35,992 bases of DNA from a virus (IMGVR_UViG_3300006754_000058:1-35992), one strand, 5' to 3'. Shown: positions 3,687 to 11,408, numbered from the stretch's first letter. Program-made: numbers and translations. The notes: generated from the sequence alone by a model not told the origin.

Positions 3687-3974
3687 TCAGAATCTGATGA
3701 CAATAACCCACTTACTGCGCAGATGATTCCACTTCCACATCAAGTGTGGCTTATGGTGCACCATTACCCAGTGGCCACGATAAAAATATACGGAATGGGC
3801 AGTGCGAGCCTTCGGTGGGCGATGGGGCTTAGCCACATTATAATGGTGGTGCTTGTGCGTGACATGAACGTGATGTCTCTTAGGGGCATGATGCTTGTGC
3901 GGCACTGCCCTTTTCTTTGCCTCAGCTACGTTAAGCTGTGTTGCCAATAGCAGGGTGGTAATTAATGAAGTCAT
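3687..3974 (-). CDS. Small histidine-rich protein with signal-peptide-like N-terminus
   Basis: I do not recognise a family for this 95-residue protein. Residues 1-19 look like a signal peptide with a hydrophobic core (LITTLLLATQL) and a possible VAEA cleavage site. The mature part is very basic and histidine-rich, with clusters such as KHHAPKRHHVH and THKHHHY. The C-terminal 35 residues are rich in W, H and Y. This suggests export and metal binding, or polyanion binding, but neither is shown. The start overlaps the UvsX stop as ATGA (3974-3971) and has an AAGGAG site. It is the last gene of the methylase-to-UvsX unit, just before the hairpin and promoter of the exonuclease gene. Confidence 0.65.
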   Translation of the reverse strand: MTSLITTLLLATQLNVAEAKKRAVPHKHHAPKRHHVHVTHKHHHYNVAKPHRPPKARTAHSVYFYRGHWVMVHHKPHLMWKWNHLRSKWVIVIRF

Positions 3975-5119: not shown

Positions 5120-5129
5120 TTACCCTCCT

Positions 5130-5870
5130 TTAGGCTTCAGAATCAAATCTCACAACGGCAGCTGTAATGCCGCCACGAGATTTTCCCCTTACATCTATTC
5201 TAACACAATCAGCTATCTTTTGCACGTACTTTTCGTCAATATACCCACAATAATCTGGAGTTAAAATATACTCAGCTATTCCAATTGTGTTGGCGAATTG
5301 TAAACGACCTGTAAGCATCTCTTCAACAACAGCTAGCTTAAACTGAGGAATTTCATCGAACACTTGTGTCATGTATGCGTTTATTACTGGGCGCACATCT
5401 CTAAACCACATATCATAATTTAATGCGACAGCGAAATCTTTAGGCTTTCTTCGAAAAGCTTTTAAAAGATTGTTAGCGCTCACCATCTTGGTGGGAAGCT
5501 CCCCAATCATGTCAATCAAGCTTTCGATAGCCTCGCATTCAAGATCTGTAAGATCTTCCTTAGTGCTCTCGTAACATAACTGCAGCGCTTTTGCTGTATT
5601 TGCACCTTGCGCAGAAGAAAGCTGAATAGCTCCATCAAGCTTGGTTGAAGTGCCATAAGTGCCCACCTTATCAAGCCACATATCAGCCTTAATTTCTGGC
5701 GGTAATCCCATTCCTTTTAAGGATACAGATTTACGATGAATTGCTTTCTTTTTGCCGAAAAAACTTGTCAAAACTTTAACGGCGCTAAGCACCTTGAGTT
5801 CAAACTTAAGATTTGGCTTATTGTTACATTCTACAATCTGCTCTTCAAATTTTACACCATTGTTAGTCAT
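5130..5870 (-). CDS. Unknown 246-residue protein, possible PD-(D/E)XK-type nuclease
   Basis: I do not recognise a firm family. The segment PPEIKADMWL, with D63, is followed after 13 residues by STK (75-77), and then by GAIQLSSAQG. An acidic residue followed by a Ser-x-Lys and a small-residue helix resembles the active-site order of some restriction-type nucleases, for example the S-x-K variant of the Cfr10I/Bse634I group. That is inference from a short motif. The N-terminal 50 residues are Lys-rich. The gene sits between an SF2 helicase and UvsX with gaps of 9 and 10 bases and an AAGGAG site. Its partner may therefore be the helicase and the methylase upstream. Confidence 0.6.
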   Translation of the reverse strand: MTNNGVKFEEQIVECNNKPNLKFELKVLSAVKVLTSFFGKKKAIHRKSVSLKGMGLPPEIKADMWLDKVGTYGTSTKLDGAIQLSSAQGANTAKALQLCYESTKEDLTDLECEAIESLIDMIGELPTKMVSANNLLKAFRRKPKDFAVALNYDMWFRDVRPVINAYMTQVFDEIPQFKLAVVEEMLTGRLQFANTIGIAEYILTPDYCGYIDEKYVQKIADCVRIDVRGKSRGGITAAVVRFDSEA

Positions 5871-5879
5871 AATTGCTCC

Positions 5880-7481
5880 TTACTTAGATGCCAATGCTTC
5901 TGGCTCTGCTGAAAAATATGATTTGTCCACGGTCGTCACTTCCGAAACAGTCTGGGGTGTATCAATAACTACGCAATATAAACCGTGATACGCAAACGCC
6001 TTAGTCCATGATTCTCGATGATTTCGGTTTGGCTTATCCATGTGTCTAATGTTGTATCTTCGAAATCCATTCTTGGATGATTGTCTAGCTGAAAGATTAA
6101 GCAATTCAGCAGCCACATCGGCTGAGTTGTTTGTTGAGCACTTAGAGCTATATATGTGACTGTCTGGGATGCCCATCTTATGCAGGCGGGCCCTTACACC
6201 ATCTTCAAAATAGTCCTTAATTACTTTTCGAACCGGTACTGTTTTTTCATGGCGCTTTGTGTGTGTGCTATCCATTGGCAGGGCGCGCTTTTTGCCAAAA
6301 TCGTTTACAGCGCATGCCTCATAATATTCAATAGCATCATCAATAGTTTCTAAATCACAAAATATAGGATATGCTGCTTCTTTAAATGAATAACCACAGT
6401 ACCTACCTCCTGACTGAATAATATCAGCCGAATTGCGTCCAGAGCGTGTATCATTTTCATAAGCAAAACAAATGTGTTGCTGATTGATAGTTTTTCCCTG
6501 CTTATAAGACTGCACAATTATTAAAACTTTAAAGCCTTCTGGCTTTTTATGTAATGTGAGTTCAAATTCTTTGATATTCTTAGCGCTTGAGTTATATTCC
6601 TGATAATCTACATCAGCTGCAGCGCAACAATCAATAACTTCTTTGCGATCCGCTTTAACAGTGGCTCTTATAATCCCATATCCAGAGGTTCCCTTATAAG
6701 ACTGTAAAAGATCTGTAAGCCCTTTCTTGAATATTAAGGCGTTTTCTTTTTTAATTCTATCTTTTTCTGTCTTTGGGATGCCTTTTGGAATTCTTCTGCT
6801 AAAGTGGGGGAAGAGCCTACCATCATCACGCATTTTTCTTAAGCTAACATAACCTTCCCCAGGAGGAAGATAAACTTCGGCAATAGCCACCTCATTTTTT
6901 TTTGAAACTTCATCATGTATGTATGCATCAACAGAAAAAGGAGTGGCCGATACTGATATTGTTTTTACATTGGATTGTTCGCTATATCCCGGCAAACATC
7001 TGATAATTGTATTAAAAAATTCTGGTAATTTTTGGAGTTTCTGTTTCTTGTTGGTAGTCCCGTTTCCAATATGACTCTCGTCCCAGATTATATAAAGAGG
7101 CTCGTTGCATTCAACAATAGCTCTTAAGTGGGTATTAAGCAGTTCACGATCTCTTGAAGCATATGCATCGGGTGCGTGCCATACCTTACCGCCAACTAAG
7201 CAATGGAACACCTGCGGACACTGCATAAATCTAGTAAAAGTCTGCTCTTTTAAAACTTTATCGGATGGACCTATCACCAAAAAATTTGGTTTTTTAGATC
7301 TATTATTTTGATAAGCGTGATACATCTGCAAGCACGCGTAAATAAGCATACCAGTTTTTCCGGCTTGCGGTTGCGCTGAAATTTGTATGTGTACTGTCTT
7401 TATGCCAGAGCGAGACAGTATTTCAAAGACTTGATTGCCAGTTTTTATTTGATTCTCATAGAATAAAGGTTTTGTTAGCAT
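5880..7481 (-). CDS. SF2 DExH-box helicase
   Basis: This 533-residue superfamily 2 nucleic-acid motor has its motifs in order: Walker A QPQAGKTG (37-44), DESH (134-137), SAT in SVSATPF (178-180), and the motif VI-like QSGGRYCGY (356-364) with the arginine finger. The C-terminal 150 residues carry extra Cys, His and Arg and may be an accessory domain. Candidates are a UvsW-like branch-migration helicase or the motor subunit of a restriction-type complex. The methylase immediately upstream (one-base gap) and the nuclease-like gene downstream favour considering the second. The ATG at 7481 has an AGGA site inside the methylase's last codons. Confidence 0.82.
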   Translation of the reverse strand: MLTKPLFYENQIKTGNQVFEILSRSGIKTVHIQISAQPQAGKTGMLIYACLQMYHAYQNNRSKKPNFLVIGPSDKVLKEQTFTRFMQCPQVFHCLVGGKVWHAPDAYASRDRELLNTHLRAIVECNEPLYIIWDESHIGNGTTNKKQKLQKLPEFFNTIIRCLPGYSEQSNVKTISVSATPFSVDAYIHDEVSKKNEVAIAEVYLPPGEGYVSLRKMRDDGRLFPHFSRRIPKGIPKTEKDRIKKENALIFKKGLTDLLQSYKGTSGYGIIRATVKADRKEVIDCCAAADVDYQEYNSSAKNIKEFELTLHKKPEGFKVLIIVQSYKQGKTINQQHICFAYENDTRSGRNSADIIQSGGRYCGYSFKEAAYPIFCDLETIDDAIEYYEACAVNDFGKKRALPMDSTHTKRHEKTVPVRKVIKDYFEDGVRARLHKMGIPDSHIYSSKCSTNNSADVAAELLNLSARQSSKNGFRRYNIRHMDKPNRNHRESWTKAFAYHGLYCVVIDTPQTVSEVTTVDKSYFSAEPEALASK

Positions 7482-7482
7482 T

Positions 7483-8319
7483 TTATTTTCCTATAATAAT
7501 AATTTCGGACGATTCGCCCATTTTCTCGCTATTAACATTTTTCATGCCATATGCCCATTTTGCATCAATAATTTTATGTTCACAATACATGTCGCGAATC
7601 TCTGGGCAGTCGTTGTACGAGAGAACCCAGTCTCCTCTTTGACTTAATAAATTATACAATGATTCATGATCAAAGTCAACATGTAATTTTCCATTTATTC
7701 CATAAAGTGCATTATTGCTACCCTCCAACATATATGGAGGGTCTAAGTATAAGAACGCTCTCGGATGCCACGGAATCGACGTTTTGAAATCCGCGTAATC
7801 TACTCTAAAATTACGCGCTTTAAAATCTCTAAGTCTTTTTACTGAAGATTCAGTAAATCTAGCGTATGAGGCTCTTGCCGACCATCCTCCTGAAAACGTA
7901 GCGCCGGAAAAGCTACTACGATTAATGGCGTAGTATTTAGCCGCTTTTTCGTAGGAAAACATCAAAGAGCCCTTTAGTTGTTCTCTAAAAGATTCAAAGT
8001 CTGACTTGCTGCAGCCTATAACCTTCTTATGCCCAATGATCACTCTCTTCTCTTTTATCGGCACTTCGTATTCTGTTCGCAATGACTCAACACAATCGGC
8101 CAAACGATCGTTGTCGCCACAAAGAGCTTGCCAAAACCACACTAATGGAGCCATCTTATCATAGCCTACGACATCAGTTCCACGAGCGGCAACAGCTAGC
8201 TCTAGAGAGCCTCCACCAAAAAATGGAGAACATAGACGTGGAATATCCTCTGGAATGTGTGGAAGTATGTGCTTTACCCCGCGGGTCTTTCCGCCGGGAT
8301 ATCTAAGCGGTGTTTTCAT
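7483..8319 (-). CDS. dam: DNA N6-adenine methyltransferase (D12/Dam class)
   Basis: This 278-residue enzyme transfers a methyl group from S-adenosylmethionine to adenine in DNA. It shows YPGGK (7-11), the AdoMet-binding SPFFGGGS (31-38), and the catalytic YLDPPY (191-196). The order fits the D12 class that includes Dam and T4 Dam. I chose the ATG at 8319 because it has a GAGGG site and begins exactly at the conserved TPLRYPGGK. The open frame extends to 8433, but that extension reads through a terminator hairpin and overlaps a lipoprotein gene in another frame. The gene heads a tight operon with the SF2 helicase, the nuclease-like gene, uvsX and the His-rich gene. Target sequence is not predictable here. 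Confidence 0.88.
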   Translation of the reverse strand: MKTPLRYPGGKTRGVKHILPHIPEDIPRLCSPFFGGGSLELAVAARGTDVVGYDKMAPLVWFWQALCGDNDRLADCVESLRTEYEVPIKEKRVIIGHKKVIGCSKSDFESFREQLKGSLMFSYEKAAKYYAINRSSFSGATFSGGWSARASYARFTESSVKRLRDFKARNFRVDYADFKTSIPWHPRAFLYLDPPYMLEGSNNALYGINGKLHVDFDHESLYNLLSQRGDWVLSYNDCPEIRDMYCEHKIIDAKWAYGMKNVNSEKMGESSEIIIIGK

Positions 8320-8328
8320 GTTGCCCTC

Positions 8329-8360
8329 AAAAAATGCGGCAGACTTTTCACCGGTCTGCC
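8329..8360 (-). terminator. Intrinsic terminator after the lipoprotein gene
   Basis: The minus strand reads GGCAGAC, nine loop bases, GTCTGCC, then GCATTTTTT. The 7-bp stem is at 8338-8344 and 8354-8360 and the T-run at 8329-8334. It ends just 10 bases before the methylase ATG, so methylase transcription must read through or be regulated here. Confidence 0.75.
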
Positions 8361-8374
8361 AGCGGCTTTTTGTT

Positions 8375-8473
8375 TTACTCAACGGCGACAGCGGTGTCTT
8401 CGCCAGTGTCTTCATCAGCGTCTCCGCAACCACTCATAAGAGCGCATGCGGCGATTAGTACAACGTACTTCAT
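8375..8473 (-). CDS. Tiny lipoprotein (32 residues)
   Basis: The translation begins MKYVVLIAACALMSGCGDAD and ends GEDTAVAVE. It has a Lys-positive N-terminus, a hydrophobic core, and a lipobox LMSGC that would give a lipid-modified Cys16. Only 16 mostly acidic residues would follow the modified cysteine. The ATG at 8473 has a near-perfect AAGGAGGG Shine-Dalgarno sequence. The gene is bracketed by two similar hairpins (8495-8523 and 8338-8360), like a self-contained expression cassette. Small phage lipoproteins are known in superinfection exclusion and in lysis (spanin outer subunits). No spanin partner is visible, so exclusion or envelope modification is only a suggestion. Confidence 0.75.
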   Translation of the reverse strand: MKYVVLIAACALMSGCGDADEDTGEDTAVAVE

Positions 8474-8494: not shown

Positions 8495-8523
8495 TGGCAG
8501 AGTATTTTAACCCCGCTCTGCCA
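8495..8523 (-). terminator. Hairpin downstream of the single-stranded DNA-binding protein gene
   Basis: An 8-bp perfect stem, TGGCAGAG with CTCTGCCA (8495-8502 and 8516-8523), encloses a 13-base loop. The 3' flank CATTTTCC is only weakly T-rich, so termination may be partial. The stem closely resembles the one at 8338-8360. Confidence 0.55.
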
Positions 8524-8549: not shown

Positions 8550-9320
8550 CTAGCCTGTCATCAATTCATCAAACGCACGGTCTACATCACTCTTACCATT
8601 GGTGGCGCCGTACTTGGCTGTCTCAGAAGAGCGACTTTCTGCGGAAGTATTTCCCGAAAGCTGCTCATCGAGGATTGCGTCGACCTGGGCTGGACTAAGA
8701 CGATCAAATAGATTTTCAAAGTCAGGCATGCGATCGAGGAGGGCGGGGATCGCTTCGCTGTCTGCCAGGAGGGTGGACGTGTTTCGACGCATCTTTAGGT
8801 TTGTCTGTGGATACGCTCCAGGCTTAGTGGGCTTGGTGTAAGTAAGGGTAATGTCCGTCCCTTCCTTGATATCGGTGATATCACCATACTCGGGATCCAA
8901 GATGTATCCCAAGAGTAGCTCGTAAGCCTGCTTTCCGTAGCCATAGACCTTGATTCCCTCGTCTTCGCGGCCACGGATAACAACGGGCGAGAAATAGCGA
9001 GTGCGTACAAAGAGTGACTTTGCAAGCTTCTTGCTCTCCTCATCGTTGTTGTCAACTCCTTCGCGCCAAAGCGAAGAAGCAAATTCACATACGGGGCAGT
9101 GCTCGCCAAAGTTGCGCTTTGGACAGAGGATACCTCCGCGGTGCTCGCCCACGTTATAGTGGAAGAACATTTCCTTTAGTGGATCGCCATCATTTGTCGG
9201 CACGATCCGAATATCTGTATCGCCCTCATCTGGCTTAAACCAGGGTGAGTTTGCGTCCTTGTTTCCTTCGCCGCGAAGGGATGCGAGCTTTCGTCGCATC
9301 AGTTCCATATCAATTCCCAT
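8550..9320 (-). CDS. gp32-type single-stranded DNA-binding protein
   Basis: This 256-residue protein would coat single-stranded DNA and help UvsX and the polymerase. The N-terminal basic segment MELMRRKLASLRGEG resembles the cooperative-binding region of T4 gp32. A zinc-site pattern of a His (54 or 60) with C66, C75 and C78 (CPKRNFGEHCPVC) matches the gp32 core. The C-terminus is acidic (DVDRAFDELMTG), where gp32 contacts partner proteins. I chose the ATG at 9320 because AGGAGAAATAAA precedes it. The frame stays open to 9383, but that longer start has no ribosome site and lies within the promoter leader. It is slightly shorter than T4 gp32 (301 residues). Confidence 0.87.
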   Translation of the reverse strand: MGIDMELMRRKLASLRGEGNKDANSPWFKPDEGDTDIRIVPTNDGDPLKEMFFHYNVGEHRGGILCPKRNFGEHCPVCEFASSLWREGVDNNDEESKKLAKSLFVRTRYFSPVVIRGREDEGIKVYGYGKQAYELLLGYILDPEYGDITDIKEGTDITLTYTKPTKPGAYPQTNLKMRRNTSTLLADSEAIPALLDRMPDFENLFDRLSPAQVDAILDEQLSGNTSAESRSSETAKYGATNGKSDVDRAFDELMTG

Positions 9321-9371
9321 TTTATTTCTCCTATTTGTTGGGTAAAGTAAATCAAGCTTTCCTTGATTCCT

Positions 9372-9400
9372 ATTGTATAACACTCAACGTAGCTTGTCAA
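9372..9400 (-). promoter_or_regulatory. Sigma70-type promoter of the single-stranded DNA-binding protein gene
   Basis: Read on the minus strand, TTGACA (9400-9395) and TACAAT (9377-9372) are 17 bases apart. The -35 box overlaps the stop codon of the preceding gene. The predicted leader is about 45 bases and ends in AGGAG. Confidence 0.78.
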
Positions 9401-10236
9401 GTGTATTCTTGTATTGCGTTAGTGTGGGCAACGCAGAGCCCAAAATCTTTGTGTTCTGTTTCATAGATTGCATAGGAGATACGACGAAATGCGTTTTTAG
9501 GCTTTTCCTTCAGCATATCAACTATTTTCTTATGCAATCCTCCTTCGTTTTCTAATTTTTCCTTATTGATACATAAATAGTAACATATATCTCGTTCCAT
9601 GTCAAGCTCGTAAAGCCATTTTTCTTGAAGATCTTTTACATCTATACCACCAAACGTTCTAATGCGATTGATGTCCAATGGCTTGGAGACAACCCCTATC
9701 TCAGGTTCTGCGTGAGTAAAGTAATTAATATAATGAACGGTGGTAAAAAAATATTCATTTAATTTTTCGTAATAGCTTTTAATGGGAACATCTCCAAGAT
9801 GATTTTCTGCCATAACATTCGATAATATTGTAAACGAATTAAGCAGTCCAGATCTTGCGTATTGCTGCAATACACTGAAAACAACCTTATCTATTAGTTT
9901 GGGGACACCTGTCAATAGTTCTGAATCTGGCAGTATGTAGAATAAGTCAACCTTTTTGTCTTTAATCTGCTCAAGAATCCCTAAAGAATAATTTGAACTA
10001 AAAGAAGAACCAACAATAAAAAATTGAACCTGCTCGTCTATGTTGGCAAAAAATTTTTGCACGTTTGGGATATTCTCTTCGTACTCTTCTGGCTTCTCAT
10101 AACTTTTTAATTTAAATTTGTATTTTGAATTTCTTTCAACACTATCATTTAAAACATAAACATTATAGTTCTTTGTTTGTTTAAATTTTTCAGCAATTTT
10201 TGATGCGGCGTTGCCTAGGCCAACAATCGAAATCAT
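9397..10236 (-). CDS. Unknown 279-residue protein, possibly a divergent tubulin/FtsZ-like protein
   Basis: The N-terminus MISIVGLGNAASKIAEKF is a nucleotide-binding-like beta-Gly-helix start, as in FtsZ/TubZ or Rossmann folds. Further on, FFIVGSSFSSNYSLGIL stands where the FtsZ glycine-rich loop would be, but the GGGTGSG signature is absent. It is followed by a beta strand DLFYILPD and then an asparagine- and aromatic-rich helical region. The layout suggests a degenerate tubulin-superfamily protein. A Rossmann-type protein is the alternative. The start overlaps the polymerase stop as ATGA (10236-10233), so it is co-expressed with DNA polymerase. The next promoter lies over its stop codon. The A/T-rich codons resemble the polymerase gene. 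Confidence 0.5.
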   Translation of the reverse strand: MISIVGLGNAASKIAEKFKQTKNYNVYVLNDSVERNSKYKFKLKSYEKPEEYEENIPNVQKFFANIDEQVQFFIVGSSFSSNYSLGILEQIKDKKVDLFYILPDSELLTGVPKLIDKVVFSVLQQYARSGLLNSFTILSNVMAENHLGDVPIKSYYEKLNEYFFTTVHYINYFTHAEPEIGVVSKPLDINRIRTFGGIDVKDLQEKWLYELDMERDICYYLCINKEKLENEGGLHKKIVDMLKEKPKNAFRRISYAIYETEHKDFGLCVAHTNAIQEYT

Positions 10237-11408
10237 AATTTAATCTCGTTCAGGTTATAATAATCTTTTCCAGCTCGTAAGTTTGCCACATATCCATCTT
10301 CAAAAATATCACGGACCCCAATCACAATATCGCGATCCTCATCAGCATAATCAATCACAATCTCATCGTGAACCACGTGAGAGATAAACGACTTCTTGCC
10401 CTCAAGCATCTTGTCGATTAAGACAGCTTTCTCCAACACGCGGTCTGCTGTGGTGCTCTGAATTAGATAGTTCAATGCCTTTCGTTGTTCCACTTTGATT
10501 TTTCGTCCGTATGGTGTATGAATATAGCCGTCTTTATAATACTTGTCAAGAACTTTTTCGCGATCATAATATTCGGAATCAATATCGTTCGATTCGGGAT
10601 TATACAACCACGCAAAAAAGTACAACTTGGCTTCTTCTCGCGTCATCTCTAAATCATTGATAATATTCTGAATATTCCATTCATGAATATCGTATTCTGG
10701 CTGCTCCTGACTGCACAGATCCAATAGTGTTCGGATCTCGGCGCCATTATAATCAAGACTCATCATCAAGTCATTGTGAGGCTTGATTATGCGGCGCAAG
10801 TCTTTCTTTAGTGTAAGGATCGGAAATGATTCTGGGTGCGTTGTTAGGCGACCTGTGACTGTTCCAAACATATTGTAATCAATGCGCGTATAGTTCTTCA
10901 TAAGCTCCTGGATCTTTTGACGATTCATCGAAGAATAAAATAGATGCTTACAATCTTCACTATTAAGATTAAGTTTCTGATAGCGAATCTTATGAAGCAG
11001 TTTATATACAGCATCTAAATGCTCGTAGTTGTCTGGCTTGTCGTATGTCTCAAATACGTGCTCGGTAATTTTATTTTTGATCTCGCAGAACTGTACAAGG
11101 AAGTCGTGAGGAATCAAATCAAACACACAATGATCCGCCATATTAACCTTGGCAATCTTGAAGGACTTTAAATAAGCCTTCATTTTTCTTATCGTAGCCT
11201 GAAGTTCATTGCACAAATCTTCTGGGCAGCAATCGGTGATATTGCGCCCTCCAGCCCTTATCCAGGCATACTCCACCGATGGGTCAGTAATAGATGCGCT
11301 ATAGCGCCACGTCTTTGTTAGGTTCTCTGGAAAATCTTCAAACGACAGTTTGCCGTCTGTGTAAATTCCAATACATTCTGACTTATCGTCAAGTGCTTGA
11401 AATATCAA
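10233..11408 (-). CDS. Family A DNA polymerase, short form without a visible 3'-5' exonuclease domain
   Basis: This 391-residue polymerase carries the PolA core. The sequence FGTVTGRLTTHPESFPIL (181-198) corresponds to the T/GRL region. Motif A is DYNGAEIRTLLDL (219-231). The O-helix is R257-K261-F265-Y269 with the RxxxKxxxFxxxY spacing. IQSTTADR (317-324) follows, and motif C is HDEIVID (347-353). The position equivalent to E. coli Phe762 is F265. The first 150 residues show no proofreading-exonuclease motifs, and the protein is shorter than T7 (704) or Klenow-type (about 600) enzymes. The start is TTG at 11408 with GGAG seven bases upstream, three bases after the preceding stop. It overlaps the next gene by four bases. 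Confidence 0.88.
   Translation of the reverse strand: MIFQALDDKSECIGIYTDGKLSFEDFPENLTKTWRYSASITDPSVEYAWIRAGGRNITDCCPEDLCNELQATIRKMKAYLKSFKIAKVNMADHCVFDLIPHDFLVQFCEIKNKITEHVFETYDKPDNYEHLDAVYKLLHKIRYQKLNLNSEDCKHLFYSSMNRQKIQELMKNYTRIDYNMFGTVTGRLTTHPESFPILTLKKDLRRIIKPHNDLMMSLDYNGAEIRTLLDLCSQEQPEYDIHEWNIQNIINDLEMTREEAKLYFFAWLYNPESNDIDSEYYDREKVLDKYYKDGYIHTPYGRKIKVEQRKALNYLIQSTTADRVLEKAVLIDKMLEGKKSFISHVVHDEIVIDYADEDRDIVIGVRDIFEDGYVANLRAGKDYYNLNEIKL

What the first reader, a model, noticed from the sequence alone, without database searches (positions are those of the whole stretch)
5130..8319. Methylase, SF2 helicase and nuclease-like gene in one tight phage operon
An adenine methyltransferase, a complete SF2 DExH helicase and a 246-residue protein with a D63...S-x-K77 nuclease-like motif are separated by 1 and 9 bases. 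Methylase plus translocase plus nuclease is the part list of ATP-dependent restriction-modification. In a phage this could be a superinfection-exclusion or host-DNA-degrading system that spares methylated phage DNA. Alternatively the methylase is counter-restriction and the helicase is UvsW-like.
Basis: inference. Interest (0 to 1): 0.62.

Follow-up and report, generated by a model that had tools for sequence, protein, structure and literature searches.

The report
Swappable restriction-like cassette in marine phage
Three adjacent genes of an uncultured marine virus of bacteria (a DNA-marking enzyme, a DNA motor and a probable DNA-cutting enzyme) form one of several interchangeable cassettes that related viruses swap in and out of a single spot in their genomes, most likely a weapon that destroys DNA lacking the virus's own mark.

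Summary
They are not core replication genes. In 80 related far-T4-like marine contigs found through UvsX, the gap between gp32 and uvsX is a hotspot. Of 62 uvsX clusters, 31 are empty, 3 hold methylase+helicase+246-aa protein, 10 hold the same methylase with other partners, and 4 hold a restriction-enzyme-like gene with another D12 methylase (three MunI-like). Helicase and 246-aa protein occurred only together: both in 2 of 46 related records, neither in the other 44, including 195- and 146-kb contigs. Between window and nearest sister (UvsX 98% identical) the helicase is 36% and the nuclease-like protein 59% identical; divergence starts at the methylase stop codon. The 246-aa protein belongs to phrog_22045, with invariant E9, E59xK61xD63, S75xK77 and Q83 in all 37 aligned sequences. 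Two other D..[E/S]xK..Q families fill its place in this slot, and all three have cyanophage homologs at one equivalent locus. Best reading: an exchangeable restriction-modification-like cassette, directed at host or rival DNA. Not shown: nuclease fold (no PDB match), activity, methylation motif. Rivals: homing-type nuclease cassette; recombination/repair module.

The parts
7483..8319 (-). D12-class N6-adenine DNA methyltransferase, 278 aa (type A of the slot: MKTPLRYPGGK...DPPY)
   Evidence: PF02086 E 5e-24; 93% identical to the L123 enzyme, 68% to L161; 13 type-A enzymes in the slot tree
5880..7481 (-). SF2 DExH helicase/translocase, 533 aa, ResIII-like
   Evidence: motifs I, II, III, V, VI; DEAD E 0.0015 below cut-off; sister allele PF04851 over cut-off and phrog_16 DNA helicase E 7e-8; 36-40% identical to the two other known alleles
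5130..5870 (-). 246-aa nuclease-like protein of family phrog_22045, with E9, E59xK61xD63, S75xK77, Q83
   Evidence: phrog_22045 E 1e-17; homologs in cyanophages and many IMG/VR contigs; conserved residues
5319..5846 (-). stretch of p246 that holds E9 (5844-5846), E59 (5694-5696), K61 (5688-5690), D63 (5682-5684), S75 (5646-5648), K77 (5640-5642), Q83 (5622-5624) and E184 (5319-5321)
   Evidence: coordinates; conservation
8338..8360 (-). terminator-like hairpin GGCAGACCGGTGAAAAGTCTGCC + T-run; left boundary of the slot, recurrent in relatives
8495..8523 (-). first hairpin TGGCAGAGCGGGGTTAAAATACTCTGCCA after gp32
8375..8473 (-). small lipoprotein-like ORF (32 aa) between the two hairpins, present in empty and filled slots
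   Evidence: alignment
5120..5129 (-). right junction of the cassette: 10 bases with AGGAGGG before the uvsX ATG
8550..9383 (-). gp32-like single-strand binding protein: conserved left flank
   Evidence: PF08804 E 1e-14; 98% identical in L123
3971..5119 (-). UvsX recombinase: conserved right flank
   Evidence: phrog_97 E 1e-61; 98% identical in L123 and in the empty-slot relative L124

Best explanation
The methylase, SF2 translocase and p246 nuclease-like protein are one exchangeable, restriction-modification-like cassette in a gene-exchange slot between gp32 and uvsX of far-T4-like marine myophages. Inferred mechanism: the methylase marks the phage's replicating DNA at an adenine-containing motif; the helicase, an ATP-driven translocase, moves on DNA or senses its state and feeds it to p246, a PD-(D/E)XK-like nuclease with S in place of the first acidic residue of ExK; together they degrade DNA without the mark, meaning the host chromosome (a nucleotide source) or a rival phage. 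Shown by sequence: the parts, their co-inheritance, their dispensability, the alternation with MunI-like restriction pairs, and repeated gain, loss or replacement. Inferred: nuclease activity, ATP-dependent coupling, sparing of methylated DNA, and the target.
For: (1) Same slot, same logic: L131, L176 and L185 carry a MunI-like REase gene next to a D12 methylase (profile vs PDB 1d02 MunI E 3.6e-6; PADLOC REase_II E 4e-7 and 9e-6). (2) The window's methylase type is followed in other phages by different D..[E/S]xK..Q proteins: a 369/370/234-aa family (L143, L138, L178) and a 380-aa SLK family (L163). (3) These three families have cyanophage homologs at one equivalent locus, mazG-[X]-DUF6267 (S-RIM50/S-SM1/S-IOM18; S-RIM8/Syn19; P-TIM40); in ACG-2014f the X gene is directly followed by a D12 methylase. 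(4) Helicase and p246 co-occur strictly: 2 of 46 records have both, 44 neither; L161, in a distant part of the uvsX tree, has the same three-gene order with 68/37/46% identity to the window. (5) Dispensable: the empty-slot relative L124 has 98% identical UvsX. (6) Helicase and the p246 N-terminal part are replaced as one block between window and L123: nucleotide identity falls from about 97% to 45% at the methylase stop and recovers at about p246 codon 163.
Against: No activity data. The confident AF2 model of a p246 homolog (pLDDT 89) has no significant PDB match, and the window protein's own model is unsure in its core. The type-A methylase appears well conserved in its central region across very different partners, so partner-specific cognate methylation, the rule in type II systems, is not evident. 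p246 homologs in cyanophages have no adjacent methylase or helicase. No specificity subunit was seen.
Confidence: 0.5

Rival explanations
1. Homing or marker-exclusion cassette: the nuclease-bearing modules of this slot spread by cutting co-infecting relatives that lack the cassette, with conversion through the gp32/uvsX flanks; the methylase protects the carrier.
For: In T4, free-standing homing endonucleases sit beside gene 32 (segG) and uvsX (segA) and cut those genes (PMC2988022). The slot shows repeated gain and loss (15 changes of methylase presence on the uvsX tree). Hairpin copies flank some cargo on both sides (L125, L156, L160, L192) while the empty relative L164 has one. Nuclease genes sit at phage exchange boundaries (PMC10448857).
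Against: p246 shows no GIY-YIG or HNH family match; no cut site is known; homing enzymes do not need a helicase or a methylase; the three-gene architecture is conserved.
Confidence: 0.2
2. Recombination/repair module: a UvsW-like branch-migration helicase and a structure-specific endonuclease that work with UvsX and gp32, plus an unrelated counter-restriction methylase.
For: Neighbours are gp32, UvsX, 5'-3' exonuclease and DnaB-like helicase; the sister allele hits ResIII and phrog_16 DNA helicase; cyanophage homologs of p246 lie close to uvsX and gp41; some relatives carry UvdE next to the slot.
Against: Absent from most relatives whose UvsX and gp32 are near identical; no detectable similarity to T4 UvsW in a profile comparison, although one side was a single sequence; allele divergence far above that of the flanking recombination genes.
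Confidence: 0.15
3. Counter-defence set: the methylase protects against host restriction, and helicase plus p246 disarm a host defence or process damaged DNA; no self/non-self cutting.
For: Orphan Dam-like methylases are widespread in cyanophages (485 phage records match); alternating cargo, including ParB-like (by eye) and GmrSD_N-like genes, would fit host-defence-dependent selection.
Against: MunI-like restriction genes in the same slot are hard to read as counter-defence.
Confidence: 0.15

Closest known systems
Type II restriction-modification (MunI-like REase + D12 methylase), as found in the same slot of L131, L176, L185
   Same: methylase next to a D..[E/S]xK nuclease-like gene, same genomic slot
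   Different: window cassette has an SF2 helicase and a different, non-MunI nuclease-like family; its methylase is of another clade
Type III restriction-modification (e.g. EcoP1 of phage P1)
   Same: adenine methylase plus SF2 ResIII-type ATPase plus nuclease part list, in a phage
   Different: three separate polypeptides; helicase is 533 aa against 970 aa for P1 Res; methylase is D12 type; no similarity to P1 Res in a profile comparison against the single sequence
phrog_22045 proteins of T4-like cyanophages (S-RIM50 gp064 and relatives)
   Same: family membership and the same conserved residues
   Different: in cyanophages it stands upstream of DUF6267, with no adjacent methylase or helicase
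T4 free-standing homing endonucleases SegG (next to gene 32) and SegA (next to uvsX)
   Same: nuclease cargo beside gene 32 and uvsX, mobile between close relatives (PMC2988022)
   Different: not GIY-YIG; carried with methylase and helicase
T4 UvsW
   Same: SF2 helicase encoded in a T4-like phage with UvsX and gp32
   Different: not conserved in the lineage; no detectable profile similarity to T4 UvsW

Membership tests
D12-class N6-adenine methyltransferase (PF02086) | Pfam profile over cut-off and DPPY catalytic motif | tested here: met
   85.7 bits against 22; YLDPPY in the alignment
SF2 helicase / ResIII ATPase | motifs I, II (DExH), III, V, VI in order; profile match | tested here: met
   motifs located; sister allele over the PF04851 cut-off; window allele alone is below cut-off
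phrog_22045 | profile match and conserved residues | tested here: met
   E 1e-17; all 37 aligned members match it
PD-(D/E)XK nuclease | D..[E/D]xK active site with flanking conserved acidic residue and Q | tested here: inconclusive
   E9, D63, SxK77 and Q83 conserved, but S replaces the acidic residue of the second motif
PD-(D/E)XK nuclease | restriction-endonuclease-like fold | tested here: inconclusive
   model pLDDT 89, no significant PDB match; only weak low-probability hits such as I-Ssp6803I and viral restriction/VRR-NUC proteins
Type III restriction-modification | Res subunit with helicase and C-terminal nuclease in one chain, partner Mod | tested here: not met
   533-aa helicase, nuclease-like protein encoded separately; no profile similarity to P1 Res
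Type I restriction-modification | HsdS specificity subunit | tested here: not met
   only three main ORFs and a 32-aa ORF between gp32 and uvsX
Type II restriction-modification | cognate REase and methylase with one recognition site | not testable with these tools
   recognition sites unknown; tandem arrangement present
UvsW | conserved core helicase of the lineage | tested here: not met
   helicase profile absent from 44 of 46 related records, including 195-kb and 146-kb contigs; contigs may be incomplete
Free-standing homing endonuclease | known homing family motif (GIY-YIG, HNH, etc.) | tested here: not met
   no such Pfam match for p246 or its homologs
Known anti-phage defence protein (PADLOC) | PADLOC model match for helicase and p246 | tested here: not met
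   no match for either; only the methylase matches, mainly type II and orphan MTase models

The most novel reading that the evidence does not exclude
A lineage of lytic T4-like phages keeps a dedicated slot between gp32 and uvsX in which whole restriction-like systems (methylase plus interchangeable nuclease, here with a separate SF2 motor) are traded as inter-phage or host-DNA-degrading weapons. The window cassette would be a split, ATP-dependent system whose nuclease belongs to a so far unrecognised SxK nuclease family shared with cyanophages.
Probability: 0.4. Interest if true: 0.78.

Novelty: new variant of a known kind. Interest (0 to 1): 0.62.

Why it matters
If true, it shows a whole population of lytic marine phages exchanging restriction-like systems at one defined place in the replication region. 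It also gives a first testable function for phrog_22045 and for two more uncharacterised cyanophage families that occupy equivalent positions. Because empty, alternative and divergent forms exist in close relatives, natural comparison sets are already in hand. How often lytic phages carry restriction systems, and against whom, is an open question that this locus would make testable.

Tried and rejected
Pfam, NCBIfam, PADLOC and PDB sequence searches with p246 and its family gave only chance-level hits. tblastn with the window helicase found no real phage homolog (hits to tail sheath at E 4); GTDB contigs gave none. The first pattern search of the viral collection missed the sister helicases; a motif-weighted probe alignment (A5, second row made by me only to steer the peptide patterns; confirmation used the real sequence) found L123. 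A first AF2 model of window p246 was poor in the core and gave meaningless Foldseek hits. Profile comparison with single T4 UvsW and P1 Res sequences gave no similarity; with only three rows on one side this is weak evidence. Profile comparison of the p246 family with the 380- and 370-aa families was not significant, so their equivalence rests on location, motif and one Foldseek match to a 378-aa S-RIM8 protein, not on sequence homology. GATC is neither avoided nor enriched in the window, so no recognition site was inferred. A first grouping of slot genes put L133, L155 and L169 with the MunI-like genes; the alignment showed they differ, and they are not counted as REases. L136's 167-aa gene is called REase-like only from its motif and its pairing with a type-B methylase; it has no MunI match of its own.

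Full report
OBSERVATION. The window is a 35,992-base viral contig of a T4-like myophage. Its gp23-type capsid protein is nearest to far-T4-like phages (an uncultured phage, Flavobacterium phage immuto, Microcystis phage Mel-JY01, Rhodothermus phage RM378). The three ORFs are confirmed on the minus strand with 1- and 9-base gaps. The methylase is D12 class and starts at 8319. The helicase carries all the SF2 motifs listed. They lie between a gp32-like protein and UvsX.

THE 246-AA PROTEIN. It belongs to phrog_22045 (E 1e-17). The nearest named phage protein is S-RIM50 gp064 (33%), and scans of IMG/VR returned 28 and 24 loci for the S-RIM50-like branch and 80 kept of 126 for the S-SM1/S-IOM18-like branch. 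In the 37-sequence alignment E9, E59, K61, D63, S75, K77, Q83, E184, K230 and R232 are invariant. A model of a homolog (L079) is confident (pLDDT 89, pTM 0.85), with the D just before one strand and S-x-K in or at the end of the next, the order expected of a PD-(D/E)XK core. Foldseek finds no significant PDB match. In the viral structure library the best named match outside phrog_22045 is a 378-aa S-RIM8 protein (E 8.5e-4, probability 1.00). Nuclease is therefore likely, but not shown.

A SISTER WITH A SWAPPED BLOCK. L123 (6 kb) has the same gene order: gp32 98%, methylase 93%, UvsX 98%, but helicase 36% and p246 59% identical. Nucleotide identity is about 97% near the 3' end of the methylase, drops to about 45-55% at the helicase start, stays low to about codon 163 of p246, then climbs to 80-95%. 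By residues, p246 is 50% identical over 1-162 and 76% over 163-246. So helicase and the motif-bearing part of p246 were replaced together. A chimeric assembly cannot be fully excluded for one short contig, but all reading frames are intact across both junctions and L161 shows the same three-gene order independently.

A HOTSPOT. A scan with UvsX gave 80 loci with UvsX 81-98% identical. With both flanks present and the window added there are 78 loci in 62 uvsX clusters at 95% nucleotide identity: 31 empty, 5 with only small ORFs, 9 with other cargo, 10 with the window's methylase type and other partners, 4 with REase-like gene plus type-B methylase, 3 with methylase+helicase+p246. These are the best matches, not a random sample. 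Presence of a methylase changes at least 15 times on the uvsX tree, helicase+p246 3 times. The empty-slot relative L124 groups with L123, with the window just outside, on that tree. The insertion point of the window cassette is precise: it follows a hairpin of the form GGCAGACCGGTnAAAAGTCTGCC plus T-run, and ends just before the uvsX ribosome site; similar hairpins occur in most other slots. In L156/L160/L192 the same hairpin flanks the cargo on both sides, and the empty relative L164 has one copy, as expected for gain or loss by recombination between repeats. The window cassette has hairpins on its left side only.

WHAT ELSE FILLS THE SLOT. L131, L176 and L185 hold a gene whose profile matches the MunI restriction enzyme (PDB 1d02, E 3.6e-6; PADLOC REase_II; Pfam RestrictionMunI E 1.7e-4, below cut-off) followed by a type-B D12 methylase. 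L163 has a GmrSD_N-like gene (E 5e-4, below cut-off), a type-A methylase and a 380-aa protein. L138 and L143 have a type-A methylase followed by a 369/370-aa protein, and L178 by a 234-aa relative. The 380-aa family reads K-x-D...SLK...Q, the 370-aa family SD or AD...E-x-K...Q; p246 reads KxD...SxK...Q. Homologs of each family lie in cyanophages at one equivalent locus, mazG-[X]-DUF6267-cytidyltransferase: p246-like in S-RIM50, S-SM1, S-IOM18, WH25-B and DSL-LC02, 380-like in S-RIM8 and Syn19, 370-like in P-TIM40. In ACG-2014f the 380-like gene is followed at 35 bases by a D12 methylase with LRYPGGKSR and DPPY motifs. Interchange of three families without detectable sequence similarity at the same place in two distant phage groups argues that they do the same job.

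CO-OCCURRENCE. In 46 records of the lineage the helicase profile and the p246 profile each match the same two (L123, L161) and none of the other 44, including contigs of 195, 146, 115, 107 and 103 kb. Weak ResIII hits in the large contigs fall in 458-474-aa open frames, as long as the DnaB-like helicase, which is one of the frames hit in the window itself; no Helicase_C match was found in ten records. Hence the helicase is accessory and not the lineage's standing UvsW, within the limit that contigs may be incomplete.

MECHANISM. Most likely (0.5) a methylation-sparing DNA-degrading cassette: methylase marks phage DNA, SF2 ATPase translocates or remodels DNA, p246 cuts unmarked DNA. Shown: parts, linkage, mobility, alternation with restriction pairs. 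Inferred: activity and target. One point counts against simple cognate restriction: the type-A methylase looks similar in its central region with very different partners, so either the partners share a site or the methylase only protects. Rivals are a homing-type cassette (T4 has mobile nucleases beside gene 32 and uvsX, PMC2988022), a repair module, and a counter-defence set.

KNOWN OR NEW. The jumbo-phage overview PMC7824862 mentions R-M systems encoded in phage genomes, so the general kind is known. A far-T4 genome paper (PMC4360716) does not mention uvsX, gp32, restriction or methylases. I found no description of this slot or of phrog_22045's function in the searches made; the paper library is partial. 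I file it as a new variant of a known kind.

Noticed in passing
L123:5669-6097; also L124, L132, L134, L137, L138, L160 and others: A UvdE-type UV endonuclease (PF03851 E 1e-23) lies downstream of uvsX in many relatives (before the exonuclease wherever that gene is also on the contig); the window lacks it there and has the 5'-3' exonuclease directly after the 95-aa ORF.
   Followed up: partly
window 8338-8360, 8495-8523; L125, L156, L160, L192, L164: Near-identical terminator-like hairpins recur at the edges of genes in this slot and may be the recombination points for cargo exchange.
   Followed up: partly
window, whole: GGCC is strongly under-represented (27 seen, 95.8 expected from a Markov estimate); no other 4-base palindrome falls below 0.8 of expectation.
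   Followed up: no
L004:8703-9602 (S-RIM50 gp063): DUF6267, the neighbour of the p246 homolog in cyanophages, carries a KYDG motif like that of ATP-dependent ligases (own reading, not tested); no paper in the library names DUF6267.
   Followed up: no
L216:3018-5254 (cyanophage ACG-2014f): A 433-aa relative of the 380-aa slot protein is followed at 35 bases by a D12 methylase where other cyanophages have DUF6267.
   Followed up: partly
L138:6850-7977, L149:7752-8975, L167:7954-9132, L136:8741-9676, L195:6311-7459: Several slot genes look ParB-like by eye; those tested (L138 against Pfam and PHROGs; L136 and L195 against PHROGs) matched no family.
   Followed up: partly
window 3687-3974: 95-aa His-rich ORF overlapping the uvsX stop by 4 bases, fast-evolving (60-78% between relatives with 91-98% identical UvsX); no family match.
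   Followed up: no
window 10233-11408: Family A DNA polymerase ORF is only 391 aa, shorter than usual; a 279-aa ORF of unknown function follows it and is conserved in the lineage.
   Followed up: no
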